Assembly: GCA_947476325.1 (NCBI GenBank)
Contig: CANJPZ010000006.1
Location: 1-64,000, forward strand
Reading direction: 5' to 3'
Source of the DNA: Caulobacteraceae bacterium
GTDB taxonomy: Bacteria > Pseudomonadota > Alphaproteobacteria > Caulobacterales > Caulobacteraceae
DNA: 64,000 bases
Position numbers and translations under genes: made by a program
Part shown: positions 769 to 34,534 of the stretch, in pieces
How the letters are laid out: every line of letters begins with the position of its first letter
How positions within the stretch are numbered: the first letter of the stretch is position 1
The notes under the pieces: generated by a model
Databases searched by the model: none
What the model was told of the DNA's origin: nothing
What the model saw: only the letters and a program-made list of their open reading frames with translations

Positions 769-2076
769 CTATCCCTTCGGCCGCCCGATCCCCTGATAGT
801 CCATGCCCTGCTCCGCCATGTCCGCAGGCTTGTAGATATTGCGCAGGTCGACCACCACATTGCCGCGCATGGCCTGGCCGATGCGGGTGAAATCGAGGGC
901 CCGGAACTGGTCCCACTCGGTCAGGAACACCAGGGCGTCGGCGCCTTGAGCCACCTCATAGGGGCCGGCGCGCATCTCGACGCCGGGCAACAGCTTGATG
1001 GCTTCATGGCCTTCCGGATCAAAGGCCTGGATCTTCGCGCCTTTTGCCTGCAGGGCAGGGACGATATCCAGCGACGGGGCATCGCGCATATCGTCGGTGT
1101 TGGGCTTGAACGTCAGCCCCAGTATGCCGATGGTCTTGCCGGAAACATCGCCGCCCATGGCTGCGGCTATACGCTCGGCCATGGCCTTCTTGCGGGCGGC
1201 GTTGACCGCGACGGTGGTTTCGATCAGCCGCAGCGGCGCGCCCGCATCGCTGGCGGTGCGGACTAGGGCGTTGGTGTCCTTGGGAAAGCAGGAGCCTCCG
1301 TAACCGGGCCCTGCATTGAGGAACTTGCCGCCGATGCGCCCGTCCAGGCCTATGCCTCGCGCCACCTGCTGCACATCGGCGCCGACGGCCTCGCACAGGT
1401 CAGCGACCTCGTTGATGAAGGTGATCTTCATGGCCAGGAAGGCGTTGGCTGCGTACTTGATCAGCTCGCTGGTCCGCCGGCCCGTGAACACCATCGGGGT
1501 CTCATTCAGCGACAGGGGACGGTATAGCTCGCGCATCACTTCGCGGGCCCGCTCGTCGTCTAGGCCGACGACCACGCGGTCGGGTCGTTTGAAGTCCTCG
1601 ATCGCAGCGCCCTCGCGCAGGAACTCCGGGTTGGAGACCACGGCGTAGTCCGCGTCAGGGCGGACCTTGCGGATGATGGCGTCGATCTCATCGCCGGTGC
1701 CCACCGGAACGGTGGACTTGGTGACGATCACCGTGAAGCCGTCGATCAGGCCGGCAATTTCTTCGGCGGCGGTGTAGACATAAGACAGGTCCGCATGGCC
1801 ATCGCCACGGCGAGACGGGGTGCCGACAGCGATGAACACCGCGTCGGCGCCGGAAATGGCTTCGGCGGCGTCGACCGAGAACGTGAGGCGGCCGGCCTTG
1901 ACGTTGGAGGCGACGATGGGTTCCAGCCCGGGCTCAAAGATCGGAATCTCGCCAGACTTGAGACGCGCGATCTTTGTAGCGTCCTTGTCGATGCAGCAAA
2001 CGATGTGGCCGAAGTCCGCGAAACAGGCGCCGGAAACCAGGCCGACGTAACCGGTTCCGATCATTGCGATCCGCAT
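769..2076 (-). CDS. ugd: UDP-glucose 6-dehydrogenase
   Basis: This enzyme oxidises UDP-glucose to UDP-glucuronate with two NAD+ in the cytoplasm. The 435-residue length is normal. The N-terminal Rossmann motif GTGYVG is at residues 7-12, the family motif NPEFLREGAA at 149-158, and the catalytic cysteine (Cys263) sits in GYGGSCFPKD. The C-terminal UDP-binding domain is complete. It stands at the left end of the polysaccharide locus and is divergent from the FkbM methyltransferase at 2258. Its product is a precursor for uronic acid residues and, through the decarboxylase at 28701, for UDP-xylose. Confidence 0.95.
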   Translation of the reverse strand: MRIAMIGTGYVGLVSGACFADFGHIVCCIDKDATKIARLKSGEIPIFEPGLEPIVASNVKAGRLTFSVDAAEAISGADAVFIAVGTPSRRGDGHADLSYVYTAAEEIAGLIDGFTVIVTKSTVPVGTGDEIDAIIRKVRPDADYAVVSNPEFLREGAAIEDFKRPDRVVVGLDDERAREVMRELYRPLSLNETPMVFTGRRTSELIKYAANAFLAMKITFINEVADLCEAVGADVQQVARGIGLDGRIGGKFLNAGPGYGGSCFPKDTNALVRTASDAGAPLRLIETTVAVNAARKKAMAERIAAAMGGDVSGKTIGILGLTFKPNTDDMRDAPSLDIVPALQAKGAKIQAFDPEGHEAIKLLPGVEMRAGPYEVAQGADALVFLTEWDQFRALDFTRIGQAMRGNVVVDLRNIYKPADMAEQGMDYQGIGRPKG

Positions 2077-7799: not shown

Positions 7800-8713
7800 C
7801 CGCGACCTTGCCGAAGGATCGCCGGCCCAATCTCATCGGAATCGGTGCGGCCAAGTGCGGCACGACATGGCTGGCCGAGGTGCTGTCACGACACCCTGAT
7901 ATTTTTGTCCATCCCCAGAAGGAGCTGAACGCCCTGGTCTACAACGACCTGGATGCGCGCCTGGATGAATACGCCGCCTATTTTGATGAAGGGCGGGATG
8001 CGAAAATCCGCTGTGATTTTTCGGTGCGCTATCTGTCCTGGCCATCGACTCCGGCCGCCGCTGCGCGGCTTGCGCCCGACGCCAAGCTTTTGCTGGTTGT
8101 GCGTAATCCGGTGGATCAGGTGCAGTCTCATTACTGGCATCTGCGCCGGCAGAACTTTCACCAGTATGAAGCCGTCAGTCCGGCTCCGGACCTGTTCGAG
8201 GCGCTGGAGCGGTTTCCGGGGTTGCTGCTGGAGCCGGCGCTTTACGGCAAGCATGTCCACCGATGGCTGGAGAAGTTTCCCCGCGAGCGCCTGCTGATCC
8301 TCGACAGTCGTGAGCTGCGTTCCAACCTTGCCGGCGCCCTGGCGCGCATCTGCGATTTCCTCGAGATTGAGGCCTTTGACTTCACAGAGGCGGCCCAGGC
8401 CACCTCGGCTCAGGACGGGCGGGCTGGGGTCTCGCCCCGCGGCGGCCTGACCGAGAGGTTGTTTTCGAGCCTGTACGTTTCAGTGGCCCGCGGGCCTTAC
8501 ATGTGGCTGAAACGCACGGTTGGGGTGGAAGGCGCCGAACGGGTGAAACGGGTCCTTCGCTTGCGTCAAACGGCGGAAGCTGTGTTCTTCAAGTCCGGCT
8601 ATCCGAAGCTGTCGCCCGCCGATCGGGCGCGGCTGTTCGAGGTCTTCCGCGAGGATATCGCGCGTTTCGTCCTGCTCGCGCCGTTCGCGGCCGACTGGAG
8701 CGCCGCGCCATGA
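7796..8713 (+). CDS. Sulfotransferase family protein
   Basis: A 305-residue PAPS-dependent sulfotransferase. The 5'-phosphosulfate-binding loop GIGAAKCGTTWLAEVL is at about residues 15-30. The 3'-phosphate-binding segment follows as LLLVVRNPVDQVQSHYWH, with the conserved Arg and Ser. The family transfers sulfate from PAPS to a hydroxyl. Its position inside a chain of 4-bp overlapping glycosyltransferase genes suggests that a sugar of the polysaccharide is sulfated, but no PAPS synthesis genes lie in the window. Other acceptors cannot be excluded. Confidence 0.82.
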   Translation: MTATLPKDRRPNLIGIGAAKCGTTWLAEVLSRHPDIFVHPQKELNALVYNDLDARLDEYAAYFDEGRDAKIRCDFSVRYLSWPSTPAAAARLAPDAKLLLVVRNPVDQVQSHYWHLRRQNFHQYEAVSPAPDLFEALERFPGLLLEPALYGKHVHRWLEKFPRERLLILDSRELRSNLAGALARICDFLEIEAFDFTEAAQATSAQDGRAGVSPRGGLTERLFSSLYVSVARGPYMWLKRTVGVEGAERVKRVLRLRQTAEAVFFKSGYPKLSPADRARLFEVFREDIARFVLLAPFAADWSAAP

Positions 8714-9933
8714 CCTTGAAAATCGGCGCCCTGCTCACCCACCCGGTGCAATACTACAGTCCCTGGCTGGCCGAGCTGGCCGGATCCTGCAACCTGACGG
8801 TCTATTACGCTCACCAGCAGACTGCCGAGGGTCAGGGCAAGGCAGGTTTTGGCGCGGGCTTTGAATGGGATGTTCCCCTGCTGGAGGGCTATGACTGGCG
8901 CTGGCTCAAGAACGTCGCCAGGTCTCCCGGCCTGACCCGCTTTGGCGGGTGCGATACCCCGGAAATCGGCGACATAATCCGGTGCGAGAAGTTTGACGCC
9001 TTCCTCATCTTCGGCTGGAATCGCAAATGCTTTATCCAGGCCGCGTGGGCCGCCCTGCGAAGCAGGACGCCCCTGCTGATCCGGCTTGATTCGGAACTCA
9101 ACACACCGCGATCGAAACTGGCCCTGCTGCTCAAGAAGCTGGCCTATTCCGTTGTGCTTCCGAAGCTGGGCGACTACCTGTCGCCCGGCGTTCGCACCGA
9201 CGCCTATCTGCGCCACTATGGCGTGCAGCCGGACCGCATCCATAGACTGCCGCACATGATCGACACCGTCCGGTTCGCTACCGGCGCCCAGGCTGCGCGC
9301 CAGGACGGGTCCGCAGCAGCTCTGCGCGCCCGCCATGGCGCGGCTGAGAACGACTTTGCTCTGCTGTTTGCCGGTAAACTGATCCCTCTGAAGCGCGTGG
9401 ATCTCGTTCTTGAGGCCCTTGCCGTCCTGAAGCGGCAGCGACCGGAACTTGCCGCACGGACACGGCTGTGGATCGCTGGCGACGGCCCTCTCCGCGCCGA
9501 ACTGGAAGCCAGGGCCGCCGCTGAGGGGCTCAATGTCTCGTTCCTGGGCTTCGTCAATCAATCGGCGCTGCCGGCGGTTTACGCCGCCGCCGACTGCCTG
9601 GTCCTGCCCTCGCAGTGGGAGACCTGGGGCCTTGTCGTGAACGAGGCCTTTGCCTGCGGCTTGCCGGCCATTGTTTCGGAACGCGCCGGTTGCGCGCCAG
9701 AACTAATCGAGGAGGGCGTCACGGGCTGGACGATGCGCAGCTTTGAGCCGGGTCATCTGGCCGACCTGATCGCAACAGCCGCCACTGCGGTTCCTACCCT
9801 CGCCACAGCGCGTATCGGTATGTTAAGCGATGACGCCAGCTTTGCCCCTGGCGTTCGTCGCGTGCTGAACGTTGTCCAGTCGATCCGCCAACGGGCGGCT
9901 TCCGGTCGGGCGGCGTCCAAAGAGGAAGTGTAA
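8710..9933 (+). CDS. Glycosyltransferase family 4
   Basis: A 407-residue GT4 enzyme. The ATG at 8710 overlaps the sulfotransferase stop (ATGA); the longer open frame from 8503 lies inside that gene and is rejected. The N-terminus MTLKIGALLTHPVQYYSP is typical of capsule GTs. The C-terminal domain shows LLFAGKLIPLKRVDLVLEAL, IAGDGPLRAELEA, and a serine-tryptophan-glutamate segment followed by GLVVNEAFACGLPAIVS with the EX7E-like acidic pair. It is probably a repeat-unit assembly enzyme. Confidence 0.87.
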   Translation: MTLKIGALLTHPVQYYSPWLAELAGSCNLTVYYAHQQTAEGQGKAGFGAGFEWDVPLLEGYDWRWLKNVARSPGLTRFGGCDTPEIGDIIRCEKFDAFLIFGWNRKCFIQAAWAALRSRTPLLIRLDSELNTPRSKLALLLKKLAYSVVLPKLGDYLSPGVRTDAYLRHYGVQPDRIHRLPHMIDTVRFATGAQAARQDGSAAALRARHGAAENDFALLFAGKLIPLKRVDLVLEALAVLKRQRPELAARTRLWIAGDGPLRAELEARAAAEGLNVSFLGFVNQSALPAVYAAADCLVLPSQWETWGLVVNEAFACGLPAIVSERAGCAPELIEEGVTGWTMRSFEPGHLADLIATAATAVPTLATARIGMLSDDASFAPGVRRVLNVVQSIRQRAASGRAASKEEV

Positions 9934-20070: not shown

Positions 20071-21819
20071 TTGATTATTCTCGGGCTCAACGCATTCCAC
20101 GGCGATGCTTCGGCTGCCCTGGTGCGCGATGGCGTCCTGATCGCCGCCGCCGAGGAAGAGCGTTTCCGTCGCATAAAACACTGGGCCGGCTTTCCCGACC
20201 AGGCCATCGCCTATTGCCTGGAAGAAGCTGGCCTGACGCTGGCCGATATCGACTATGTCGCCGTCAACTCCGACAGCCGCGCCCATCGATGGGCCAAGGC
20301 GCTTTATGTCCTGGGCTCGCGGCCTGACCCGCGCCTGATCCTCGACCGCCTGAAGAACCGCAAAGCCCGAAAGGGCGTGCCCGAACATCTGGCCGAAGCC
20401 TTCCCGGGAGCCGCCTTCAAGGGGCAGGTGGTTCCGGTCGAACACCACATGAGCCACCTGTCCTCTGCCTTCCATGTCTCGCCGTTCGAAGAGGCGGCGG
20501 TGGTTTCGGTCGATGGCTTTGGCGATTTTTCCAGCGCCGCCTGGGGCCTGGGAAAAGGCGGCAAGATCGAGGTTGATGGGCGGGTGCTGTTTCCGCATTC
20601 GCTGGGCGCCTTCTATCAGGCAATCACCCAGTACCTGGGCTTTCCGCATTATGGCGACGAGTACAAGGTCATGGGCCTGGCGCCCTACGGCCAGCCGACC
20701 CGGCTGGACGAGATGCGCAAGATCGTCAGGTTGCAGGACGATGGGTCCTTTCGCCTCGACCTGACCTACTTCCGGCATCACCGCGAAAAGATCGATTACA
20801 CTTGGACCGGCGGCTCGCCCGAGGTGGGCGACCTGTTCTCGCCTGCGCTGGAAGCTCTTCTGGGGCCCCGCCGCGACCCGGCCGTGCCCTTGACCCAGGG
20901 CGACAAGGATCTCGCCCGCTCGGCCCAGGCCATGTACGAGGAGGCCTTCTTCCATCTGCTCGGCGCCATGCACAAACGCCACCCGGTGGACGCGATCTGT
21001 ATCGCCGGCGGCTGCGGCAACAACTCGGTCGCCAACGGCAAGGTTCGCCGCCTGACGCCCTACAAGCATGTCTATGTCCAGTCCGCGGCGGGTGACGCCG
21101 GCGGCGCGGTCGGTGCGGCCTTCGCGCTGTGGCACGACAAGGGCGGCAAGCGCGGCTTTGTCATGGACCACGCCTATTGGGGCCCCTCGTTCGGTCCGGA
21201 GCCCATCGCCGGCCTGGTCGCCGAAAAGAAGCAGGACCTCAAGGCGGCGGGATGCACGGTCAAGGTGATGACCGACGAGGACGCCCTGTGCGCCCGCACG
21301 GCAAAGGCCGCCTCGGACGGCCTTGTGGTCGGCTGGTTTCAGGGGCGGATGGAATGGGGCCCGCGCGCCCTCGGCGCCCGCTCAATCGTCGGCGATCCGC
21401 GCCGGGCCGACATGAAGGACATCCTCAACGCCAAGATCAAGCGCCGCGAAAGCTTCCGCCCCTTTGCGCCTTCGGTGCTCGAAGAGTCGGTGATCGACTG
21501 GTTCGAGGAAGAAGACGCCGTGCCCTTCATGATGCAGGTCTTCCAGATCCGCGAAGAACGCCGGCCTCAGATTCCCGCCGTGACCCACGTCGACGGCTCG
21601 GGACGCCTGCAGACGGTGAGCGCAAAGACCAACCCACGCTATCACAAGCTGATCTCCGCCTTCCGCGACATCACCGGCGTGCCCATGGTGCTCAACACCT
21701 CGTTCAATGAGAATGAGCCGGTGGTCTGCACGCCGGCCCAGGCGCTGGACTGTTTCCTGCGCACCAAAATGGATGTGCTCGTGCTGGGTGACACCTTCAT
21801 CGAGCGTAAAGCCGGATGA
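20071..21819 (+). CDS. NodU/CmcH-family carbamoyltransferase
   Basis: This 582-residue protein matches O-carbamoyltransferases, which transfer a carbamoyl group from carbamoyl phosphate, through carbamoyl-adenylate, to a hydroxyl. The N-terminal kinase-like domain begins MIILGLNAFHGDASAALVRD. The metal-binding EHHMSHLSSAF lies near residues 124-134, and the C-terminal YrdC-like domain carries GRMEWGPRALGARSI near residues 425-440. The start is TTG at 20071, preceded by a purine-rich stretch; no ATG is available nearby. In this locus it probably carbamoylates a sugar, as NodU does on Nod factor. Confidence 0.88.
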   Translation: MIILGLNAFHGDASAALVRDGVLIAAAEEERFRRIKHWAGFPDQAIAYCLEEAGLTLADIDYVAVNSDSRAHRWAKALYVLGSRPDPRLILDRLKNRKARKGVPEHLAEAFPGAAFKGQVVPVEHHMSHLSSAFHVSPFEEAAVVSVDGFGDFSSAAWGLGKGGKIEVDGRVLFPHSLGAFYQAITQYLGFPHYGDEYKVMGLAPYGQPTRLDEMRKIVRLQDDGSFRLDLTYFRHHREKIDYTWTGGSPEVGDLFSPALEALLGPRRDPAVPLTQGDKDLARSAQAMYEEAFFHLLGAMHKRHPVDAICIAGGCGNNSVANGKVRRLTPYKHVYVQSAAGDAGGAVGAAFALWHDKGGKRGFVMDHAYWGPSFGPEPIAGLVAEKKQDLKAAGCTVKVMTDEDALCARTAKAASDGLVVGWFQGRMEWGPRALGARSIVGDPRRADMKDILNAKIKRRESFRPFAPSVLEESVIDWFEEEDAVPFMMQVFQIREERRPQIPAVTHVDGSGRLQTVSAKTNPRYHKLISAFRDITGVPMVLNTSFNENEPVVCTPAQALDCFLRTKMDVLVLGDTFIERKAG

Positions 21820-23519: not shown

Positions 23520-24626
23520 GTGCCAACCGTCATTGTCTGCGACTGGATTCCCCCCGAGTTCGGCGCTGTCGGACAGTACATGCACCGGCGCGCCCTTGGC
23601 CTGGCCGCCGCCGGCCAGCAGGTGGTCCTGATCGGCCTGGGCCAGGTGGGCCAGATCGAGCATCACGGCCTTCTGACCATCGTCCGCCTGGCCGCGCCCA
23701 AGCTTGCCAAGACCGCCTCGATTCCGCGCCGGGCGCTCTGGGCCTTTAACAACAGCCGGCGGCTGCTCGGCGAGGTTGGCCGCGCGCTGCGGGATTTTCC
23801 CGAAGGCGAGGGCGAAATCGTGGTGACCGGCTCGCCGCCGTTCCTGTCCTATCTGATGATCCTGGCCAATCTCTTCGCCTGGCGCAGGACTCTGGTTTAC
23901 CGGATCACCGACTTCTATCCCGAGACTCTGTTCGCGGCCGGGCACTTCCGCGCCCTGAAATGGCTGGAAGGGCCCTTTCACGCGTTGCGGCGCGGCGCCG
24001 ACCGCATCGAAGCTCTGGGCGAGGACCAGAAGCGGCGCCTGGTCGAGTCCGGCTTTCCCGCAGAGCGTATCGTCATTGTGCGCGACGACTCGCCGATCAG
24101 TGACTGGTCACGCCGGGCGCCCATCCAGCGCCCCTTCAGCGACGACAAGGTCACCTTGCTGTACTCGGGCAATCTGGGCGTCGCTCACGATCTACCGACC
24201 CTTTGCGCGGCCTATGAGCATCACGTGCGCAAGGGCTCGGATCGGGTCCGCATCTGGATGAACGGACAGGGGACCCGTGTTGCTGAACTGCAGGCTTTTT
24301 GCGAAGCCCGGGACTTGCCTCTGCACCTGACACCGCCCGCCGCGCTTGAAGACCTGCCCGAGGTGTTGCGGACAGGGGACGCCCAGCTGGTGCTGCTCAA
24401 GGATGATTTCTGGGGCTATGTCCTGCCCTCGAAAATCTACGCCTGCCTCGAACTGGACCAGCCGATATTGTATGTCGGTCCCTCTGAATCCGACCTGTAT
24501 CTCCTGCTGGCCGAACGTCCTTCTCCCTGGTTTCACGCCCGGCCGGGTGAGGTCGAGGCTTGCGCTGGGGCGCTGGAATCCCTGGCTGACAGCGTCCTGG
24601 CCGGGCGGGACAAGGCAAGGCGATGA
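23520..24626 (+). CDS. Glycosyltransferase, GT4-like
   Basis: A 368-residue protein from the GTG at 23520. IVCDWIPPEFGAVGQYMHRRAL matches the N-domain of GT4-like enzymes that resemble WbuB. The C-domain has LLYSGNLGVAHDLPTLCAAY and VLPSKIYACLELDQPILYVG, where the usual glutamate pair is reduced. The stop overlaps the following EEP gene (ATGA). Function in repeat-unit assembly is inferred from fold and location. Confidence 0.75.
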   Translation: MPTVIVCDWIPPEFGAVGQYMHRRALGLAAAGQQVVLIGLGQVGQIEHHGLLTIVRLAAPKLAKTASIPRRALWAFNNSRRLLGEVGRALRDFPEGEGEIVVTGSPPFLSYLMILANLFAWRRTLVYRITDFYPETLFAAGHFRALKWLEGPFHALRRGADRIEALGEDQKRRLVESGFPAERIVIVRDDSPISDWSRRAPIQRPFSDDKVTLLYSGNLGVAHDLPTLCAAYEHHVRKGSDRVRIWMNGQGTRVAELQAFCEARDLPLHLTPPAALEDLPEVLRTGDAQLVLLKDDFWGYVLPSKIYACLELDQPILYVGPSESDLYLLLAERPSPWFHARPGEVEACAGALESLADSVLAGRDKARR

Positions 24627-25648
24627 ATGGCGGCAAGGGCCGACTGATCGCCGGACTTTCAGCGCTTCCGCTGGACCTGATCCGCGCGGCCGTTTTGCTG
24701 TCTGTGTTCGGTTCGGCCCTGGTCGGCGTGCTGGCCATCGGCGGCCGGTTCAGTCGCCTGCTCGATGCGCCGGCGCACCTGGCTCTGGCGGGTCTTGCCC
24801 TGTCCCTGGTGATGCTGCTGGCCGCGCTCCTGACCTCAACCGGACATAGCCGGACGCCTGTTGTTCTGGGTTTGGTCGGGGTGGTGGCGTGGTCGGTGCT
24901 GGTCAATCCCGAGTACGCATCCGCCCTGTCAGCCAAAATGGCGGCGCCGGGCGGCGACAGCATCAAGGTGGTGCAATTCAACCTTTGGTCCAGCAATGCC
25001 GACCACGCCGTCACCGCTGACTGGATCCTGAAGCAGGACGCCGACGTCGTGGCGGTCGAGGAGGTCTCGGTCAATTCCTACGGTGTCCTGCGGCGGCTCA
25101 AGGCGCAGTACCCGTTCATGGTCGGCTGCAGCGATCCCAGTCCCTGCTCGACCATGATTTTGACGAAGACCGCGCCAATTGCCTCAGGCGGACAGACCAG
25201 CCCGTTCGGGCCCGCCAATCTGGTCTGGGTGAAGATGGCCGGGTCCGGCGGCGAATTCACCCTGGTCGGCGCTCACCATTCCTGGCCCTATCCTGCGGCC
25301 GACCAACCCTCCCAGGTCAGCTGGACGGCCGATGTGCTGAAGACCTTCGACCGCGACAGCCTGATCGTGGCCGGAGATTTCAACTCTACCCCCTGGTCGG
25401 CGTCCCTGCGGCGGCAGGACAAGCTGTTTGATCTGCATCGTGTGACGCGCGCCCTGCCGACCTTTCCCGCGCGGACGTTTGCGCGCCGCCCGATCGCTTT
25501 TCCTGTCCCGTTCCTGCCCCTCGACCATGTCTACACAGGCAAGGCCTGGCAGGCAGTCAGCGTCAAGCGCGGTCCCCGGCTGGGCTCGGACCACTATCCG
25601 GTGGTTGTCGTCCTGCGGCGCATTGAAGTTGCCGCCCAATCCCGGTAA
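24623..25648 (+). CDS. Membrane-anchored endonuclease/exonuclease/phosphatase-family protein
   Basis: A 341-residue protein with two to three hydrophobic N-terminal segments (about residues 18-40, 50-72 and 75-92), then an EEP domain likely facing the periplasm. The domain motifs are VVQFNLWSSN near residue 113, VVAVEEV with the metal-binding Glu, VAGDFNSTPW near 250, and GSDHYPVVV at the end. EEP enzymes cleave phosphodiesters in nucleic acids or lipids. It is coupled by 4 bp to a glycosyltransferase gene, so a role on a lipid or sugar phosphate is plausible, but this is inference. Confidence 0.8.
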   Translation: MNGGKGRLIAGLSALPLDLIRAAVLLSVFGSALVGVLAIGGRFSRLLDAPAHLALAGLALSLVMLLAALLTSTGHSRTPVVLGLVGVVAWSVLVNPEYASALSAKMAAPGGDSIKVVQFNLWSSNADHAVTADWILKQDADVVAVEEVSVNSYGVLRRLKAQYPFMVGCSDPSPCSTMILTKTAPIASGGQTSPFGPANLVWVKMAGSGGEFTLVGAHHSWPYPAADQPSQVSWTADVLKTFDRDSLIVAGDFNSTPWSASLRRQDKLFDLHRVTRALPTFPARTFARRPIAFPVPFLPLDHVYTGKAWQAVSVKRGPRLGSDHYPVVVVLRRIEVAAQSR

Positions 25649-25692: not shown

Positions 25693-26664
25693 ATGACCAA
25701 ATCCGCACTGGTGCTCGGCGCCGGAGGATTCATCGGCGGGCATCTGGTCAGGCGCCTGAAGGGCGAAGGCTTCTGGGTGCGCGGCGTTGATCTCAAGTTC
25801 AACGAATACGCCGAGACCGAGGCCGACGATTTCGTCATTGGCGACCTTCGCGAGCAGGACGTGGTCCGGGCGGTCATCGACCGGCGCTTCGACGAGATCT
25901 ATCAACTGGCGGCCGATATGGGCGGGGCTGGCTATATCTTCACCGGCGAGCACGACGCCGACATCATGCACAATTCGGCGACCATCAACCTCAACGTCGC
26001 TGACGCCGCACACAAGCGTAACATCAAGCGGGTGTTCTATTCCTCATCGGCCTGCATGTACCCGGCCCACAATCAGGAAGATCCCGACAATCCCAACTGC
26101 GCCGAGGATTCCGCCTATCCGGCCGCGCCGGACAGCGAGTACGGCTGGGAGAAGCTGTTCTCCGAGCGCCTGTTCCTGGCTTACAATCGCAACCACGGCG
26201 CCCAGAACCGTGTCGCGCGCTATCACAACATCTTCGGCCCCCAGGGCACCTGGGACGGCGGCAAGGAAAAGGCCCCCGCCGCGGTTTGCCGCAAGGTCGC
26301 CCAGGCCCGCTCGGGCGGCTCGATCGAAATCTGGGGCGATGGCTTGCAGACCCGATCCTTCCTCTATGTCGACGAATGCCTCGAAGGCTCGACCCGGCTG
26401 CTGCGTTCGGACATCGATTTTCCGGTCAATATCGGCTCGGACGAGATGGTCAGCATCAACCAGCTGGCCATGATGGTCGCCGAAATCGCCGGCAAGTCCC
26501 TGACGCTCGAACATATTCCGGGGCCCCTGGGCGTGCGCGGCCGCAACTCGGACAACCGTCTGATCCAGAAGGCCCTTGGCTGGTCGCCCAGCCAGCCTCT
26601 GGTCAAGGGGCTTGAGAAGACTTACGCGTGGATTGAACAGCAGGTCCACCGGAACGCGGCCTGA
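25693..26664 (+). CDS. GDP-mannose 3,5-epimerase-like protein
   Basis: A 323-residue extended SDR. It closely follows the plant GDP-D-mannose 3',5'-epimerase pattern: [10 protein letters not shown] at 9-18, AADMGG at 73-78, SSSACMYP with Cys121, SEYGWEK with Tyr150 and Lys154, [13 protein letters not shown] with Lys193, and GVRGRNSDN at 280-288 with the arginines that bind the phosphates. The presence of both the Cys and the Lys acid-base residues favours conversion of GDP-mannose to GDP-L-galactose or GDP-L-gulose. It lies directly before gmd. The closest alternative is a general NAD-dependent epimerase of unknown product. Confidence 0.85.
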
Positions 26665-26675
26665 GCAGGGGGCGG

Positions 26676-27728
26676 ATGGCCAAGACAGCGCTCATAACCG
26701 GGGTAACGGGCCAGGACGGCGCCTATCTGGCCGAGCTCCTGCTCGCCAAGGGCTACGTGGTCCACGGCATCAAGCGCCGCTCGTCCTCGTTGAACACCGG
26801 CCGCATCGATCACATCTATCTCGACCCCCACATCGAGAACGCCCGGTTCTCGCTGCACTACGGCGACATGACCGATGCGGCGAACCTGATCCGCGTGGTG
26901 CAGGAAACCCAGCCTGACGAGATCTACAATCTCGCCGCCCAGTCCCACGTCCACGTCAGTTTCGAGACTGCCGAATATACCGCCAACGCTGACGGCGTCG
27001 GCGCGCTGCGTCTGCTCGAGGCCGTCCGGCTGCTGGGCCTGGCGGGCAAGACCCGCTTCTATCAGGCCTCGACCTCGGAACTGTACGGCAAGGTCCGCGA
27101 GACGCCCCAGACCGAGCTGACTCCCTTTTATCCGCGCAGTCCCTACGCTGTAGCCAAGCTCTACGCCTACTGGATGACGGTGAACTACCGCGAGGCCTAT
27201 GGCATCCACGCCTCGAACGGAATCCTGTTCAACCACGAAAGCCCGATCCGCGGCGAGACGTTCGTCACCCGCAAGATTACCCGCGCCGTGGCCGCCATCG
27301 AGCTGGGCCTGCAGGAAAAGCTCTATCTGGGTAATCTCGACGCCGAACGCGACTGGGGCCACGCGAAGGACTACGTCGAGGGCATGTGGCGCATCGTCCA
27401 GCAGGACGAGGCTGACGACTATGTGTTGGCCACCGGCGAGACACGCTCGGTGCGGGAATTTGTCGAACGCGCCTTCGCCCAGGTCGGGCGCACTATCGAA
27501 TGGCGGGGCCAGAGCGTGGACGAGCGCGGCCATGATGCTCGTACCGGCCAGATGCTGATCGAAATCGACCCGGCCTATTTCCGCCCCACCGAAGTTGATC
27601 GGCTGATCGGCGATGCGTCCAAGGCGCGCGCAAAACTGGGCTGGGCGCCGACAATCGGGTTCGAACAACTGGTCGCCGAAATGGTCGCCGGCGATCTCGA
27701 GGTCATGGCCAGGGAGCGCCGGACCTGA
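26676..27728 (+). CDS. gmd: GDP-mannose 4,6-dehydratase
   Basis: A 350-residue enzyme that converts GDP-D-mannose to GDP-4-keto-6-deoxy-D-mannose. The N-terminal [30 protein letters not shown], the STSELYG active-site stretch, [15 protein letters not shown] with the Tyr-x3-Lys pair, and [15 protein letters not shown] are all signature elements. It starts 11 bp after the epimerase stop. Its stop overlaps the first codons of fcl, forming a gmd-fcl pair for GDP-L-fucose. Confidence 0.95.
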
Positions 27729-28717
27729 GCGGCTTTGACCTTACCGGCAAGCGGGTCTTTGTCGCCGGCCACTCAGGCATGGTCGGACGCGCCATCGTGC
27801 GCCGCCTGGCCAGTGAACCCGTCACACTTGTCACGCCCAAGGATCGCATCGACTTCCGCCGTCAGGCTGAGACCGAGGCGTGGATGGCCGCGCAGAAGCC
27901 TCACGTCGTCTTTCTGGCCGCAGCCAGGGTCGGCGGCATCCTGGCCAACGACAATGCGCCGGCCCAGTTTCTCTATGACAACCTGATGATCGAGGCCAAC
28001 CTCATCGAGGCCGCGCGCCGCACTGGCGTCGAGAAGCTGGTGTTCGTCGGCTCGTCCTGCATCTATCCAAAGGACGCCGCCCAGCCGATCACCGAAGACG
28101 CCCTGCTGTCTGGTCCTCTGGAGCCGACCAACCAGTGGTACGCCGTCGCCAAGATCGCGGGCATCAAGCTGGCCCAGGCCTATCGCCGGGAATACGGCTG
28201 CGACTTCATCAGCGCCCAGCCGACCAACCTCTACGGGCCGTTCGATAACTTCGACCTGACTGCCAGTCATGTGATCCCCGCCCTTATGCGCAAGGCCCAC
28301 GAGGCCGCGCAAAGCGGCGAGCCCCTCGTCGTCTGGGGTTCGGGCCGGCCTTTTCGCGAGTTCATGCACGTCGATGATCTGGCAGACGCCCTGGTTTTCC
28401 TGGCGCAGACCTGGAGCGGCGAGGACATCGTCAATGTCGGCAGCGGCGAGGAAGTTTCCATAGCTGATCTGGCCGGGATGATTGCCAGGATCGCGGGGCT
28501 TTCCGGCGCGCCAGTGTTCGACGCCTCCAAACCCGACGGCACGCCGCGCAAGCTGGTGGACGTTTCAAGACTGAAGGCGATGGGCTGGAATCGCGCAAGA
28601 GCGCTGGCGCCGGGCCTGCAGGACACCTACGAATGGTTCCTGAACCATCGCCAAAGCGTGCGGGGCTACGCCGACGCGCCTTCAACAAGACAGAAGCAAG
28701 ATGACCAGCAACTATAA
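27725..28717 (+). CDS. fcl: GDP-L-fucose synthase, probable CTG start
   Basis: Epimerase-reductase that makes GDP-L-fucose from the Gmd product. The first in-frame ATG is at 27779, but the conserved N-terminus [14 protein letters not shown] is encoded in frame upstream of it, so that ATG lies inside the dinucleotide-binding loop and cannot be the true start. No ATG, GTG or TTG is in frame between it and the gmd stop. CTG at 27725 (then SGFDLTGKR) overlaps the gmd stop as CTGA and is the likely start, giving 330 residues. The active site SSCIYP and YAVAK with Tyr and Lys are intact. It overlaps the next gene by 17 bp. Confidence 0.88.
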
Positions 28718-29663
28718 CAGCCACAAACGCATTCTGGTCACCGGCGGCGCCGGGTTCATCGGCTCACACCTGTGCGAGCGCCTGATCGACCAGGGCCATG
28801 AGGTGCTTTGCGTCGACAACTTTTTCACCGGCACGCGCACGAATGTCCGGCACCTGATCGGCAACCCGATGTTCGAGCTGATGCGTCACGACGTGACCTT
28901 CCCGCTCTATGTTGAGGTTGACCAGATCTACAATCTGGCCTGCCCGGCCAGCCCGGTTCACTACCAGCACGATCCGGTCCAGACGACCAAGACCTCGGTC
29001 CACGGGGCCATCAACATGCTTGGCCTGGCCAAGCGCGTGAAGGCGACCATTCTGCAGGCCTCGACGTCGGAAGTTTACGGCGATCCGTCCGTTCACCCCC
29101 AGACCGAGGACTACTGGGGCAACGTCAATCCGATCGGCCCCCGGTCCTGCTACGACGAAGGCAAGCGTTGCGCCGAGACCCTGTTCTTTGACTACTGGCG
29201 CCAGCATGCCCTGAACATCAAGGTCGCCCGCATCTTCAACACCTACGGACCGCGCATGCATCCGAACGACGGCCGGGTGGTGTCCAATTTCGTGGTCCAG
29301 GCGCTCAAGGGCGAGGCGATCACCCTGTTCGGCGACGGAACCCAGACCCGCTCGTTCTGCTATGTCGATGACCTTGTCGAAGGCCTGATCCGGCTGATGA
29401 ACACGCCGGTTGGCGTCACCGGTCCGATCAACCTGGGCAATCCCAATGAGTTCACCATGCGCCAGCTGGCCGAGCTGGTTATCGAGATGACGGGCTCGGG
29501 TTCAAAAATCGAACTTCGCCCTCTGCCCGTCGATGATCCGCGCCAGCGTCAGCCCAATATCGAACAGGCGGCCCGCCATCTCGACTGGAAGCCCGACACC
29601 CAGCTGCGTGAGGGCCTGGCGAAAACTATCGCCTACTTCGATGGTCTGCTTCGTCAGACCTGA
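28701..29663 (+). CDS. uxs: UDP-glucuronate decarboxylase (UDP-xylose synthase)
   Basis: A 320-residue SDR that converts UDP-glucuronate to UDP-xylose. [16 protein letters not shown] at about 13-28, [40 protein letters not shown] (Tyr and Lys of the active site) and [15 protein letters not shown] are characteristic of the UXS clade rather than dTDP-glucose dehydratases. Its substrate comes from ugd at the other end of the locus. The 3' end overlaps the opposite ligase-family gene by 38 bp. Confidence 0.92.
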
Positions 29664-31011
29664 CCATCAGGGCGCAGGCAAAGGCGAAGATCACCGCCAT
29701 CGACAGGGTCCGCAACGGATAGTCGATCGTCGAGTGCAGCAGCAGCAGCGCCACGACGATGCTGCCGGCGCAGGCCAGATTGGCGCGCTTCGACGATGGC
29801 TCGGCCCAGGCGGAAAGGCCGCGCCGAACCACCCAGACCAGGAACCCGACCAGGGCCAGCAGGCCCAGCAGGCCTGTCTCCAGGAAGATTTCCAGAAATT
29901 CGTTGTGGGCGTGGTTCCAGAATTTGGGGCCCATCTGGTCGATGTTTTCGTGGCCGGCGAACACCGGGACGAAGGTGCCCGAGCCTGATCCGAAAGGCAG
30001 ATACTCCAGCGCCGTGCGGGCCGTAGTTATGGCGGTGGGCAGGCGCCCGCCAGACTCGATGTCGCTGGCTCCGGCGAAGCGGTCCAGAACCGGACCGATG
30101 CCGAAAGCCACGGCCACCAGGGCAACCACGGCGATGACTCCGGCCAGCAAGGTGGTGCCCCGCCGGCCTTCACCGCGTTCATTGCGCCAGACCAGAAGCA
30201 GGCTGGCGACCAGAGCGGGCAACATCAGCAGTACGCCCGCCCGGGACTTGACGACGACCAGCGCGACGATTTCCATGGTGAAGATGCCGATGACAAAGGC
30301 GACCGGGACCAGGGTCTTGCGCCGCTGATGGCGATCGAGGTTGAGCCACAGGGCGGCCAGCGGCAACGATGTGACCAGCAGCGCGGCCTGGTGGTTGCGA
30401 TTGACGAACAGTCCGACTGCCGAGTCGGTGTTGGAGTTCTCGACAAAATAGAGGTTGCTGTCCGGACCGGCCGCGACCTGGGCCATGCCGAGCATGATGC
30501 TGACGACTGCAAGCGCCAGGGGAATGACCGTCAGCCAGCGCTTCCTGTCGGAGGGCAGCATGGCGACGGCGATAAAGACAGCGGCCGGCGGCAGCAGGGC
30601 AAGAAGATGCGACAGGGTTTCAGCCGGCAACAGGCTGATCGGCGACCAGCCTGAAGCAACGCCGGCCAGACGGCGCACCTCGGCGGCGGGTGCATGCCCG
30701 GGAAGTCTGGCCCACAGGCCATCCGGAAGCGGGATCAACTGAATGACGAGAATCGCAAAGGCGCCCGCCAGCAGGATCAACGGATAGCGCATGCCCGCCG
30801 GCAGCGTCCGCGATGTCAGGCGCCAGATTGAATAGGCCAGCAGTGGCAGGCTGACCAATTCGATGATGATCATCTGGTTGAGGTTGTAGCGCGTGGCCCC
30901 GCCCAGCAGGATCGCTACCGTCATCACCACGACGATCAGGACGGTCAGAATGGTCTCGCCGCTGATCCGGCCCATGGGCCGCCGCTTCGGAGGTTGCCAG
31001 GGCATGTTCAT
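29626..31011 (-). CDS. O-antigen ligase family membrane protein
   Basis: A 461-residue polytopic membrane protein from the ATG at 31011, which overlaps the upstream stop as ATGA. It has about eleven or twelve hydrophobic segments and a Wzy_C/WaaL-type signature: [15 protein letters not shown], then [13 protein letters not shown], and the periplasmic loop with [10 protein letters not shown] and [16 protein letters not shown]. This family contains ligases and Wzy-type polymerases; in an EPS operon it may act on the lipid-linked polymer. It shares 38 bp with uxs on the other strand. Confidence 0.85.
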
Positions 31012-32255
31012 TGGGCGGCCCCGGCGGGCACGACATTCAGCTTGTCGTACCAAAGATTGATATCGGCCCTGCGATCACCAGTGATCCCTTTCAGGACCAG
31101 GCGCTGGCCCGGGCAGCCGGCCGGCACCACAAAATCGGTCGAGAACTTGCGCCACTGGCCGCCTGTCGCGGGCGCAGGCGCCGTGGCCAGCACAACAGGC
31201 TGGCCCTCGCACTGAACAATCCAGGCCATACGCCCGGCCGAGGTGGGGGTCTCGCTCTTCACCTCGCCGATTAGGGAATATCGCCCGGGCGGGATCACCA
31301 TCAACTGGCTTGGGAACTGGCGAGCGACCATGCCGTCATAGAGCACATGCAGGGCGGGATCGTTGCGGTCTTCGGGCGGCTCGACCAGACCCGAGGCGCC
31401 ATCGGTGAAATTCCAGCCAAAGGGCTTTGAATCCGGCATGCCGTCGAAGTCGCCGTCGTAGACATTTGACAGCTTGGACGTGACCCCGTCCGGCAGGAAC
31501 AGGATCCAGTCCAGATAGGCCTCATCGAAGCGCCCGAGGGCGACAAGCCGGGTCAACAGACCCGTCAGTTCCTCAGGCGAGATTGTGCCCTTGGCGTCTT
31601 TGATCGATGAAAACAGCTTGAACAGGACACCGGGATCCGGCTGGGACTGGATGACCTTTTCCGTGAAGACGTTCCGCCAGGCCGGTCCCTTGGCCAGGCG
31701 TTTGGCCAGCGGGGCAGCGGCCTCCGGGTCGTTCAGGCTGCTGGCCAGACGGGGGAAGAGCTGGGTCGTGAACTCGGCTTCCCGTCGCAGCAGGGAATCG
31801 GCCCGGACAAAGGCCGGCTCATACCGGCGCTGGGCCAGCAGGTGATCGAACAACCAGAGGTCGGCGATGTTTTCGCGGTGATTGATGCTCACTGCGGCGT
31901 TCATCAGAGCCTCAGCGTTCTTGGCGCCGCCTTCACGGTCCTTGATGGTTCCGATCAGGCTCATGGCCACGGAATTGAGCGGCTCGCGGTGCAGGGTCAT
32001 GTGAGCCTGGCGGGCTGCGGCGTCCAGCTTTGCGGTGTCGGCGGACTGATCCTTGACCGTATCCCAGAGCGCATTCAGGGACGCGTTGGCGTTGGCCGGA
32101 CCACGCGTGACGATGCTTGAGTCGTTGGAAAGCACCAGGGCGGCGAGCCCGAGGCTCGCCAGGGCAAGTCCGATCGCCAGCGCCAGTCTCACGGGAGATC
32201 CGCCCCCGGGCAATCCCGATGGGCGGTTCGTCCTCGGCGAGACGGCGTTACTCAA
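31008..32255 (-). CDS. Membrane-anchored protein of unknown function in the export operon
   Basis: A 415-residue protein. Residues 1-20 are a short cytoplasmic part, and 21-43 form one hydrophobic segment. The periplasmic part consists of a helical region (about 60-250) that looks TPR-like and a C-terminal half (about 265-410) rich in beta strands, with FGWNFTDGAS, PGRYSLIGEVKSETP and KGITGDRRADINLWYD, which suggests a carbohydrate-binding-like sandwich. I do not recognise the family. It overlaps the autokinase and ligase-family genes by 4 bp on each side, so it is co-translated with export machinery. Confidence 0.75.
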   Translation of the reverse strand: MSNAVSPRTNRPSGLPGGGSPVRLALAIGLALASLGLAALVLSNDSSIVTRGPANANASLNALWDTVKDQSADTAKLDAAARQAHMTLHREPLNSVAMSLIGTIKDREGGAKNAEALMNAAVSINHRENIADLWLFDHLLAQRRYEPAFVRADSLLRREAEFTTQLFPRLASSLNDPEAAAPLAKRLAKGPAWRNVFTEKVIQSQPDPGVLFKLFSSIKDAKGTISPEELTGLLTRLVALGRFDEAYLDWILFLPDGVTSKLSNVYDGDFDGMPDSKPFGWNFTDGASGLVEPPEDRNDPALHVLYDGMVARQFPSQLMVIPPGRYSLIGEVKSETPTSAGRMAWIVQCEGQPVVLATAPAPATGGQWRKFSTDFVVPAGCPGQRLVLKGITGDRRADINLWYDKLNVVPAGAAQ

Positions 32256-34534
32256 TTGCCGCTCTTGATCTGGGGCTTGTTCCCGTAGGCGTAGTCATAG
32301 GCATAGCCGTAGCCGTAGCCGTAGCCATAGGACGATTTCTTGGCGTCGAACTTGGTCAGCAGAACACCCAGGATGCGCGGCGCGCCGACGTTCAGACGGC
32401 GCAGGGCGATGCGAGCGAGGTTGCGCCCGGTTCCGCCGGCCTCGATGACAATCATGGTGCCGGCGACGACCGACGCCAGCAGAGGCGCATCGGCCAGTCC
32501 CATGATCGGCGGGCCATCGACCACCACGATGTCATAGGCGCCGCGCGCTTCACGCAAAAGCATCTCCACCCGCGAGCCGGCCAGCAGTTCGGCCGGATTG
32601 GGCGGCAGGGGGCCGCAAGGCACGAAGGACAGGCATGGCGTGTCAGTGGGCTGCACGATGCGCGAAAGCGGCATGCCGCCGGTCAGGAAGTTGCTCAGGC
32701 CGGCGCTGTTTTCCATTTGCATGGCCCGGTGCAGGGACGGATTGCGCAGGTCGCCGTCGATCAGCAGAACCCTCAGGCCCAGGCGGGCAAAGTTCTGGGC
32801 GACCGAGACGGCGCTGGTGGACTTGCCTTCAGAGGGCCTTGCGCTGGTGACCAGCAGACTGGCCGGCACGCCCTCATCCGTCGAGAACTGCAGCGCCGTT
32901 CGGACGGAGTAATAGGATTCCGAGAAGGCCGATCTGACATCCTGCATGGCCTCGCGGGGTGTAACGCCGCGATCGAGTTTCGGGATGGTGCCGAGCAGCG
33001 GCAGGCCCAGCTTCTTTTCGACGTCTTCCGGCATGCGGATCGACTCGTCCAGGTACTCAAACAGGAAGGCCAGGGCGATGCCGAGGAACAGGCCGATCAG
33101 GGCGGCGGTAATGACCGTTTTCTTCGGCTGTGGCTTGGACGGGAAGCGCGGCGGCTGGGCCTCGTCGACGATCGAGATGTTGTTGGCGGTGATGGCGCCG
33201 GCCGTGCTGACCTGCTTGTACTGATCGAGCAGGCTTTCGTACTGGGCCTTGCTGGTGTCGGCGGCCATCTGCTTGATGCCGAATTCGATACCTTGCGAAT
33301 TCTGGTTCAGGAACGAACCGGTCAGGGCCTGGACCTGGGCTTCCTGCTGCTGTTCGAGCGCCAGGGCGGCCTGGTACTGGGTCTTCAGCGAGTCTTTCAC
33401 CGAATTGGTTTCGACCTGGATCTGGTTGCGCAGTGCGGTGATCCGCGATTGCAGGCCAATCATCCGGTCTTCGTTGGGCAGGAAGACCTGGCGCTTTTCC
33501 TGGTATTCCTGCTCGCGCGCCGACAGTTCCTGCTTCAAGCTCTGGATGGTCAGGTTTCCCAGGACTTCGGGTAGGTCGGTGGTTGTCTGTTGAGCCTGAT
33601 TGTAACGCGCTTCGGCCCGAAAGCGGGCATCCTTCGCCGCGCTCAGCGCCGCGTTGGCGGCCATCAGGCTGGTGCCCACCAGGGTCGTGCCGGTGCCGGC
33701 GCTGGATGACTTCTCGCCCACCGTAGGGGTGGTGATGTTGATGATCTTGTTCTTGGTCGCGTAGTCGGCCAGCTCGCGCTGGGTGCTCTCCAGCTTGACC
33801 TTCTCCTCGTCGATTCGCGTCTTTAGGAAGTCGCGGGCATAGCCGGACGCGTCGTACCGGCGGTCAAGATTCCACGCGATGAACGTGGTGGCCACCGCAT
33901 TGGCGACCTTGGCCGAGGTCTGCGGACTGGGGCTGTCGAACGTCAGCCGGACCAGGCGCGAGCGTTGCACCGGCAGGACCGAAAGATTGTTCTGCAGGGC
34001 CGCAATGAGCTGGGTGCGGATTGTCGAGGCCGCCGGGCGCTTGCCGTCAGGGCCCGGCTGACCCAGACCAAGGCCGCGGATCAGCGCCTGGTCGTTGATC
34101 AGGTCGTTGTTGTCCACGGTCTTGACGGCCAGTTCGCGGCTCTTCAGCAGGCCGTGCTGGGTCTCGAAGAACTCATCCCCCGCGCCCACTTCACGCGGCT
34201 CATTGGTTTGCAGGTCGCCGACCTTCGGCGCCTCGCGGTCGATCTGCATGGTGACGGCCGCCGTGTAGATCGGCGTGGTCAAAAGGGTCTTGGCCACACC
34301 GGCGGCCACGGCCAGGATCATTACCGCCGCGATCACCAGCCAGTGCTTGGCCAGGATACGCAGATATTTCTGGATATCGATGCCGCCTTCCTGGTGGGGC
34401 TCATCGCCAAACCACTCATAAGCGCCATAGCCACGTCCGCGCTCTGGCGCCATGACGACGGCGCCGCGGCCGGGGCCGGCGGGAATGCGGTCCGGAGCGT
34501 TACGGTCCGCAATCTCCTCGTTGTCACCCAGCAT
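32252..34534 (-). CDS. Polysaccharide co-polymerase / tyrosine autokinase, Wzc/ExoP type
   Basis: A 760-residue inner-membrane protein that controls chain length and couples polymerisation to export. Transmembrane segments lie at about 65-85 and 474-492, with a long periplasmic coiled-coil domain (about 230-460) between them and a Pro-rich PPRFPSKPQP before TM2. The cytoplasmic BY-kinase has Walker A SARPSEGKST (564-573), Walker A' LLIDGDLRN (590-598) and Walker B VVVDGPP (670-676). The C-terminus has eight tyrosines in YGYGYGYGYAYDYAYG, the usual autophosphorylation cluster. It pairs with the phosphatase at 35307. Confidence 0.93.
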   Translation of the reverse strand: MLGDNEEIADRNAPDRIPAGPGRGAVVMAPERGRGYGAYEWFGDEPHQEGGIDIQKYLRILAKHWLVIAAVMILAVAAGVAKTLLTTPIYTAAVTMQIDREAPKVGDLQTNEPREVGAGDEFFETQHGLLKSRELAVKTVDNNDLINDQALIRGLGLGQPGPDGKRPAASTIRTQLIAALQNNLSVLPVQRSRLVRLTFDSPSPQTSAKVANAVATTFIAWNLDRRYDASGYARDFLKTRIDEEKVKLESTQRELADYATKNKIINITTPTVGEKSSSAGTGTTLVGTSLMAANAALSAAKDARFRAEARYNQAQQTTTDLPEVLGNLTIQSLKQELSAREQEYQEKRQVFLPNEDRMIGLQSRITALRNQIQVETNSVKDSLKTQYQAALALEQQQEAQVQALTGSFLNQNSQGIEFGIKQMAADTSKAQYESLLDQYKQVSTAGAITANNISIVDEAQPPRFPSKPQPKKTVITAALIGLFLGIALAFLFEYLDESIRMPEDVEKKLGLPLLGTIPKLDRGVTPREAMQDVRSAFSESYYSVRTALQFSTDEGVPASLLVTSARPSEGKSTSAVSVAQNFARLGLRVLLIDGDLRNPSLHRAMQMENSAGLSNFLTGGMPLSRIVQPTDTPCLSFVPCGPLPPNPAELLAGSRVEMLLREARGAYDIVVVDGPPIMGLADAPLLASVVAGTMIVIEAGGTGRNLARIALRRLNVGAPRILGVLLTKFDAKKSSYGYGYGYGYAYDYAYGNKPQIKSGN
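32287..32328 (+). repeat. Seven degenerate hexanucleotides encoding the Tyr tail
   Basis: Seven six-base units follow one another on the plus strand (aggcgt, agtcat, aggcat, agccgt three times, agccat). They encode the alternating Tyr-Gly/Ala/Asp tail of the autokinase on the minus strand. Three consecutive units are identical, so the array could expand or contract without a frameshift. Confidence 0.85.

What the first reader, a model, noticed from the sequence alone, without database searches (positions are those of the whole stretch)
25693..26664. Bacterial protein with the plant GDP-mannose 3,5-epimerase signature
The active-site Cys121, Tyr150, Lys154, Lys193 and the GVRGRNSDN phosphate loop follow the plant vitamin-C enzyme very closely, and the gene sits directly before gmd and fcl. 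It would give the cell GDP-L-galactose as well as GDP-L-fucose from the same GDP-mannose pool.
Basis: partly seen in the sequence, partly recalled or inferred. Interest (0 to 1): 0.55.

Follow-up and report, generated by a model that had tools for sequence, protein, structure and literature searches.

The report
Ordinary bacterial GDP-mannose 3,5-epimerase gene
The gene most likely makes an unusual sugar building block, GDP-L-galactose, for the cell's slime or capsule, using the same chemistry as the plant vitamin C enzyme; such a bacterial enzyme is already known and this one belongs to a group found in other bacteria and in phages.

Summary
ORF 25693-26664 (+, 323 aa) is 50% identical to Arabidopsis GDP-mannose 3,5-epimerase (GM35E, GME; E 5e-97) and keeps all eight residues named in a 2022 review. 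The window's own fcl carries the fucose-synthase residues (His, Lys) at the two diagnostic positions, so both enzyme types stand side by side. The AlphaFold model matches solved plant GMEs best (VIA Z 39; next fold 35).

It is not specially plant-like: it lies inside a bacterial clade (the 80 relatives kept are 72-88% identical, by title mostly Alphaproteobacteria), with related phage proteins, while two plant sequences branch outside. A bacterial GM35E was characterised in 2019, and gmd-fcl-GME was described in a cyanophage in 2022.

The gmd-fcl neighbourhood is not general: gmd lies beside GME in 2 of 81 loci (the window and L006), and 5 of 8 GME-bearing genomes of the family have no gmd. 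A commoner neighbour is a WcaI-like GT4 glycosyltransferase, adjacent in 33 of 81 loci; here it is 1.07 kb upstream (23520-24626). [quoted passage not shown] New member of a known kind; substrate, product and polymer untested.

The parts
25693..26664 (+). GDP-mannose 3,5-epimerase (GM35E/GME), 323 aa; S119, C121, Y150, K154, N179, K193, R221, R284
26676..27728 (+). gmd, GDP-mannose 4,6-dehydratase (350 aa)
   Evidence: TIGR01472 593 bits, cut-off 415
27722..28717 (+). fcl/wcaG, GDP-L-fucose synthase; first ATG at 27779 but the frame with the Rossmann motif begins earlier (27722 is my reading frame start, the true start codon is unknown); Cys113, His183, Lys277 in this reading
   Evidence: NF047922 468 bits, under its 500-bit cut-off; residues; frame
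28701..29663 (+). UDP-glucuronate decarboxylase (UDP-xylose synthase type)
   Evidence: PDB 2b69/4gll E about 2e-127
24623..25648 (+). endonuclease/exonuclease/phosphatase-family protein between the glycosyltransferase and GME; role unknown
   Evidence: PF03372 E 2e-21
23520..24626 (+). WcaI-like GT4 glycosyltransferase; candidate L-galactosyltransferase (inferred from recurrent neighbourhood with GME)
   Evidence: NF007640 WcaI family 47 bits, E 1.5e-12, well under the 276-bit cut-off; neighbourhood
20071..21819 (+). NodU-type O-carbamoyltransferase
   Evidence: PF16861, PF02543; NF041651 156 bits, under its 1000-bit cut-off
29626..31053 (-). Wzy_C/O-antigen ligase-like protein
   Evidence: PF04932 E 1e-17
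32252..34534 (-). Wzc-like chain-length/tyrosine autokinase
   Evidence: PF02706, PF13807
34582..35310 (-). Wza-like polysaccharide export protein
   Evidence: PF02563, PF10531
35307..36341 (-). CpsB/CapC-like protein of capsule synthesis
   Evidence: PF19567 E 1e-55
769..2076 (-). UDP-glucose/GDP-mannose dehydrogenase family protein
   Evidence: PF03721, PF00984, PF03720

Best explanation
The protein is a bacterial GDP-mannose 3,5-epimerase. With bound NAD it oxidises GDP-D-mannose at C4 (Y150, K154, S119), inverts C5 and C3 of the 4-keto sugar with Cys121 and Lys193 as acid/base pair (Arg284 beside the Cys), and reduces C4 again, giving mainly GDP-L-galactose, with GDP-L-gulose and GDP-D-altrose as by-products (mechanism taken from PMC8787198). 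The GDP-L-galactose is most likely used by a WcaI-like GT4 glycosyltransferase (23520-24626) to put L-galactose into the exopolysaccharide built by the surrounding cluster, beside L-fucose from gmd and fcl. Shown here: sequence, residues, predicted fold, clade, neighbourhood. Inferred: substrate, product, transferase, polymer.
For: E 5.2e-97 to 2c59 and 50% identity. All eight residues of PMC8787198 are present and read SCYKNKRR in 176 of 176 rows compared: the window, two plants and 173 distinct bacterial, phage and viral-contig sequences; the rows were picked by similarity to the window, so this is not an independent test. The window's own fcl differs at exactly the two diagnostic positions, His and Lys, as the review says for GMER. 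Motifs shared with plants and absent from Fcl: GGx[25 protein letters not shown]. Second model pLDDT 88.6; the first 14 Foldseek rows are all GME chains, E 7e-37 to 8e-33, against 1.8e-23 for the next; VIA Z 39 to 37 for GME, 35 and less for other epimerases, 31.9 for E. coli Fcl (1gfs). gmd is absent from 5 of the 8 GME-bearing genomes of the family even at E 1e-20, so GME need not depend on the Gmd product. A WcaI-like GT4 enzyme is adjacent to GME in 33 of 81 loci. Substrate supply: ManC-type guanylyltransferase domain, 311 bits, under the 373-bit cut-off; two phosphohexomutase genes.
Against: I found no report of an assay of any member of this clade. The one characterised bacterial enzyme (Methylacidiphilum) could not be placed in my tree. 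The clade has features absent from both plants and from the eight more distant proteobacterial sequences, above all a two-residue insertion (85-86) shortly after the AADMGG motif and A79 for Met/Ile. Model residues 75-81, in that active-site region, are under pLDDT 50. The glycosyltransferase link is neighbourhood only; in the window and in L006 the gene is about 1.1 kb away, behind another gene; the WcaI family score is far under its cut-off, and another glycosyltransferase of the window (8503-9933) also hits that family weakly (35 bits). No curated NCBIfam model names the protein as GME.
Confidence: 0.85

Rival explanations
1. A GM35E-fold enzyme with shifted outcome: the clade mainly makes GDP-L-gulose (C5 only) or GDP-D-altrose (C3 only), or uses another GDP-hexose.
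For: Clade-wide differences near the active site: the insertion residue G85 in 151 of 154 sequences, with Q71, A79, D88 and L224, against two plants and eight distant sequences. BlmG of bleomycin synthesis was hypothesised to give L-gulose (PMC6678494).
Against: All eight named residues and the GDP-contact motifs are as in plants. The bacterial enzyme assayed so far gave the same equilibrium ratio as the plant one (PMC6678494).
Confidence: 0.1
2. It acts downstream of gmd on GDP-4-keto-6-deoxymannose, as a second epimerase or reductase.
For: Directly beside gmd and fcl here and in L006; same trio in phage S-SCSM1; gmd within the flank of 4 of 80 viral-contig loci.
Against: Lys and Arg instead of Fcl's His and Lys; 5 of 8 GME-bearing genomes in the family lack gmd, three of those five at least 98% complete (G004, G033, G115); gmd beside GME in only 2 of 81 loci; an fcl is already present.
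Confidence: 0.03
3. A misread generic sugar epimerase (GalE or UDP-xylose synthase type) or an inactive relic.
For: No NCBIfam model reaches its cut-off; the best is Fcl at 118 bits against 500. Pfam gives only the general Epimerase family.
Against: GME is by far the best sequence and fold match; complete reading frame and conserved residues across the clade.
Confidence: 0.02

Closest known systems
Arabidopsis thaliana GDP-mannose 3,5-epimerase (PDB 2c59, 2c54, 2c5a, 2c5e)
   Same: Fold, all eight named residues, GDP-binding motifs, 50% identity
   Different: GxxGxxG instead of GxxGxxA at the NAD site and a two-residue insertion after AADMGG; the sequence match ends 34 residues before the end of the 379-residue plant chain; set in a polysaccharide cluster
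Methylacidiphilum fumariolicum GM35E (PMC6678494), first characterised bacterial member
   Same: Bacterial; 50.5% identical to the Arabidopsis enzyme by the paper, much as this one; same catalytic residues as described in its text
Synechococcus phage S-SCSM1 ORF121-123 (gmd, fcl, GME; PMC9602691)
   Same: Same trio side by side with an annotated carbamoyltransferase some 3.4 kb away; GME 60% identical
   Different: Order gmd-fcl-GME instead of GME-gmd-fcl; phage-borne; other glycosyltransferases
GDP-L-fucose synthase (Fcl/WcaG/GMER)
   Same: Same superfamily, Cys acid, C3/C5 epimerisation chemistry (PMC8787198)
   Different: 28% identity to the window's own Fcl; Lys base and Arg helper instead of His and Lys

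Membership tests
GDP-mannose 3,5-epimerase (GM35E) | Catalytic triad S/Y/K for C4 oxidation and reduction (At S143, Y174, K178) | tested here: met
   S119, Y150, K154
GDP-mannose 3,5-epimerase (GM35E) | Cys acid and Lys base (At C145, K217), Lys rather than His | tested here: met
   C121, K193; the window's fcl has His
GDP-mannose 3,5-epimerase (GM35E) | Arg (At R306) rather than Lys beside the Cys; Arg for the diphosphate (R243); conserved Asn (N203) | tested here: met
   R284, R221, N179; fcl has Lys at the first
GDP-mannose 3,5-epimerase (GM35E) | NAD-binding glycine motif | tested here: met
   GAGGFIG at 9-15
GDP-mannose 3,5-epimerase (GM35E) | Full seven-wall 'heptagonal box' motif set | tested here: inconclusive
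   The review shows the walls in a figure that is not held. The named residues are met, but Y-G-W-E-K replaces the plant Y-G-L-E-K in 154 of 154 clade and viral-contig sequences; 4 of 8 distant ones also have Trp
[quoted passage not shown]
   needs an assay
GDP-L-fucose synthase (Fcl/GMER) | His base and Lys helper | tested here: not met
   K193 and R284 instead; 118 bits against a cut-off of 500
Plant GME by recent transfer | Nests with plant sequences | tested here: not met
   The two plant rows form a separate branch; the window lies in a 68-row clade of bacterial, phage and viral-contig rows, SH-aLRT 99 (quick tree, program warns that long branches meet at the base)

The most novel reading that the evidence does not exclude
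The mainly alphaproteobacterial and phage clade is a distinct GM35E subfamily whose altered substrate-side loop (two-residue insertion, A79, D88) gives a different main product such as GDP-L-gulose, passed to a WcaI-like transferase, so that a rare L-hexose is a common but overlooked component of bacterial surface polymers.
Probability: 0.1. Interest if true: 0.5.

Novelty: new member of a known kind. Interest (0 to 1): 0.2.

Why it matters
If right, these bacteria can make GDP-L-galactose; a 2020 survey (PMC7725333, Table 3, passage seen) lists D- and L-galactose together in only 33 genomes, of extremophiles. The clade also offers many enzymes of ordinary-temperature bacteria for making rare L-sugars, and a candidate L-galactosyltransferase to test. 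It does not change what is known about the enzyme itself.

Tried and rejected
Plant-to-bacterium transfer: not supported by the tree. gmd-fcl as necessary partner: tested and weakened. gmd (E 1e-30) lies beside GME in 2 of 81 loci, the window and L006; 66 of the 81 have at least 2.5 kb on both sides. In 149 genomes of the family, gmd (E 1e-60) is in 3 of the 8 with GME (G000, G015, G109) and in 51 of the other 141, so no association (my tabulation; the eight were searched again directly, same result). G068 (88%) and G109 (85%) are the least complete of the eight. Vitamin C route: the accession I recalled for a GDP-L-galactose phosphorylase family was not in the library, so this is untested. 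Placing the Methylacidiphilum enzyme in the tree failed: its sequence was not reached. A first gene-neighbour clustering missed GME in 24 of 81 loci, one cluster of 17 looking like antisense frames over it, and was replaced by tblastn and profile searches. The glycosyltransferase profiles were built from the neighbours they then found, so their hit counts are not independent of the seeds; 2 of the 33 adjacent genes (L010, L050) are on the other strand. Literature searches for L-galactose in such bacterial polymers listed nothing that I recognised as on these organisms; I looked into two of the listed papers by passages only (PMC3210612, PMC7356697) and do not conclude that nothing is in print. 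and passages gave nothing further on GME.

Full report
What is there. The ORF at 25693-26664 on the + strand encodes 323 aa. Its four cited residues and the GVRGRNSDN loop are at the stated positions. The closest solved proteins are the plant GDP-mannose 3,5-epimerases, 2c59 at E 5.2e-97 and 8sg0 at 1.9e-93, with 156 of 310 aligned residues identical to Arabidopsis.

Enzyme type. The 2022 review PMC8787198 (outline and sections 4, 5, 7 and 13 read) names S143, C145, Y174, K178, N203, K217, R243 and R306 of the Arabidopsis enzyme, and says that GDP-L-fucose synthase has His for the Lys base and Lys for the Arg. The window protein has all eight; the window's own Fcl has the His and the Lys (the residue table used a numbering off by two and is replaced). 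Across 176 rows (window, two plants, 173 distinct bacterial, phage and viral-contig sequences) the eight letters are identical; these rows were chosen by similarity to the window, so the invariance is expected rather than independent. The first fold model had weak active-site loops; a second with a more varied alignment reached pLDDT 88.6 but still had residues 75-81 below 50. Foldseek and VIA-align both rank GME structures first, clearly ahead of GalE-type enzymes and Fcl.

Where it belongs. One scan of bacterial and archaeal genomes, with patterns taken from the window protein itself, found 224 relatives at E 1e-3 or better; the best 80 were kept (72-88% identity), by their titles mostly Alphaproteobacteria, with some Gammaproteobacteria, Desulfobacterota, Nitrospirae and Bacteroidia bins. 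In a quick tree of 81 rows the nearest rows to the window are Caulobacterales sequences, though the smallest well-supported group that holds it has 24 rows. Phage and viral-contig proteins lie in the same 68-row clade (SH-aLRT 99). The two plant sequences and eight more distant proteobacterial ones (45-54% identical to the window) branch outside it. The program warns that long branches meet at the base, so the exact position of the plants is unsure. The gene is patchy: 8 of 149 genomes of the window's family at E 1e-80; 11 of 299 of its phylum at E 1e-60, 5 of them only in the distant group.

Neighbourhood. In the window the order is glycosyltransferase (23520), phosphatase-family protein (24623), GME, gmd, fcl, UDP-glucuronate decarboxylase (28701), then Wzy-, Wzc-, Wza- and CpsB-like genes on the other strand; I did not identify a Wzx flippase. 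The relative L006 has the same order. In L011, L041 and L057 the glycosyltransferase, GME and the decarboxylase are together with no gmd or fcl between them, so gmd-fcl looks like a unit gained or lost beside GME (inference). gmd is adjacent in 2 of 81 loci. Outside these, phage S-SCSM1 has gmd-fcl-GME, and 4 of 80 viral-contig loci have gmd (one only 40% identical) but none an fcl at the thresholds used, in short flanks. A WcaI-like GT4 enzyme is adjacent (under 600 bp) in 33 of 81 loci, 31 of the 66 with 2.5 kb on both sides; window and L006 are not among the 33, their copy being about 1.1 kb away. The two subfamilies seen match each other's profiles only weakly (E about 1e-6 to 1e-15 as a rule), which may be no more than shared GT4 ancestry. 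In E. coli wcaI lies near gmd and wcaG in the colanic acid cluster (recalled), which fits a transferase for GDP-L-sugars, but this is inference.

gmd in the genomes. Of the eight GME-bearing genomes of the family, gmd is beside GME in two (G000, G015), on another contig in one (G109), and not found in five at E 1e-20. So the enzyme's substrate in those five cannot come from Gmd, unless their assemblies miss it (completeness 98, 99, 88, 93 and 100%).

Substrate supply. A guanylyltransferase-type gene lies on the same contig outside the window (718-aa frame), and two phosphohexomutase genes are on another contig, one of them GlmM-like by its place before a GlmS-like frame (by eye).

Known before. 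PMC6678494 (parts 1-3 of 5 read) reports the first bacterial GM35E and cites BlmG and the A201A pathway. PMC9602691 (passages) describes the gmd, fcl and GME genes of a cyanophage. PMC7725333 (passages) lists D- and L-galactose together in 33 genomes of extremophiles.

What differs. The clade has a two-residue insertion after AADMGG (G85 in 151 of 154), A79 for Met/Ile, D88 for His/Lys, and L224 for Thr or Met, against both plants and the eight distant sequences. These could tune the product ratio; nothing here tests it.

Verdict. A well-supported bacterial GM35E, ordinary in kind, with a testable candidate partner glycosyltransferase.

Noticed in passing
L010, L016, L017, L024, L026, L034, L038; exception L052: Eight of the 80 loci have an Fcl-like protein (50-57% identical to the window's fcl, E 1e-45) but no gmd in the fetched flank; 7 of these 8 carry Ala in place of the catalytic Cys, L052 keeps it (its fcl lies at the edge of the fetched DNA), as do the window, L006 and phage L088, which have gmd. 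A weaker relative in L059 (37%) was not examined. A Cys-less Fcl paralogue beside GME has no role that I know of.
   Followed up: partly
   Followed up: partly
window 27722-27779: fcl appears to start with a codon other than ATG/GTG/TTG near or within the end of gmd; the first ATG would cut into the nucleotide-binding motif.
   Followed up: partly
window 20071-21819; L006, L049, L054, L088: A NodU-type carbamoyltransferase lies in the same cluster, also some 4 kb from GME in L006, within 320 bp of GME in L049 and L054 (no gmd in their flanks; L054 is a 4.5 kb contig), and one is annotated about 3.4 kb from GME in phage S-SCSM1, hinting at a carbamoylated sugar.
   Followed up: no
window 7796-8713: A sulfotransferase-family gene (PF00685) sits inside the exopolysaccharide cluster.
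   Followed up: no
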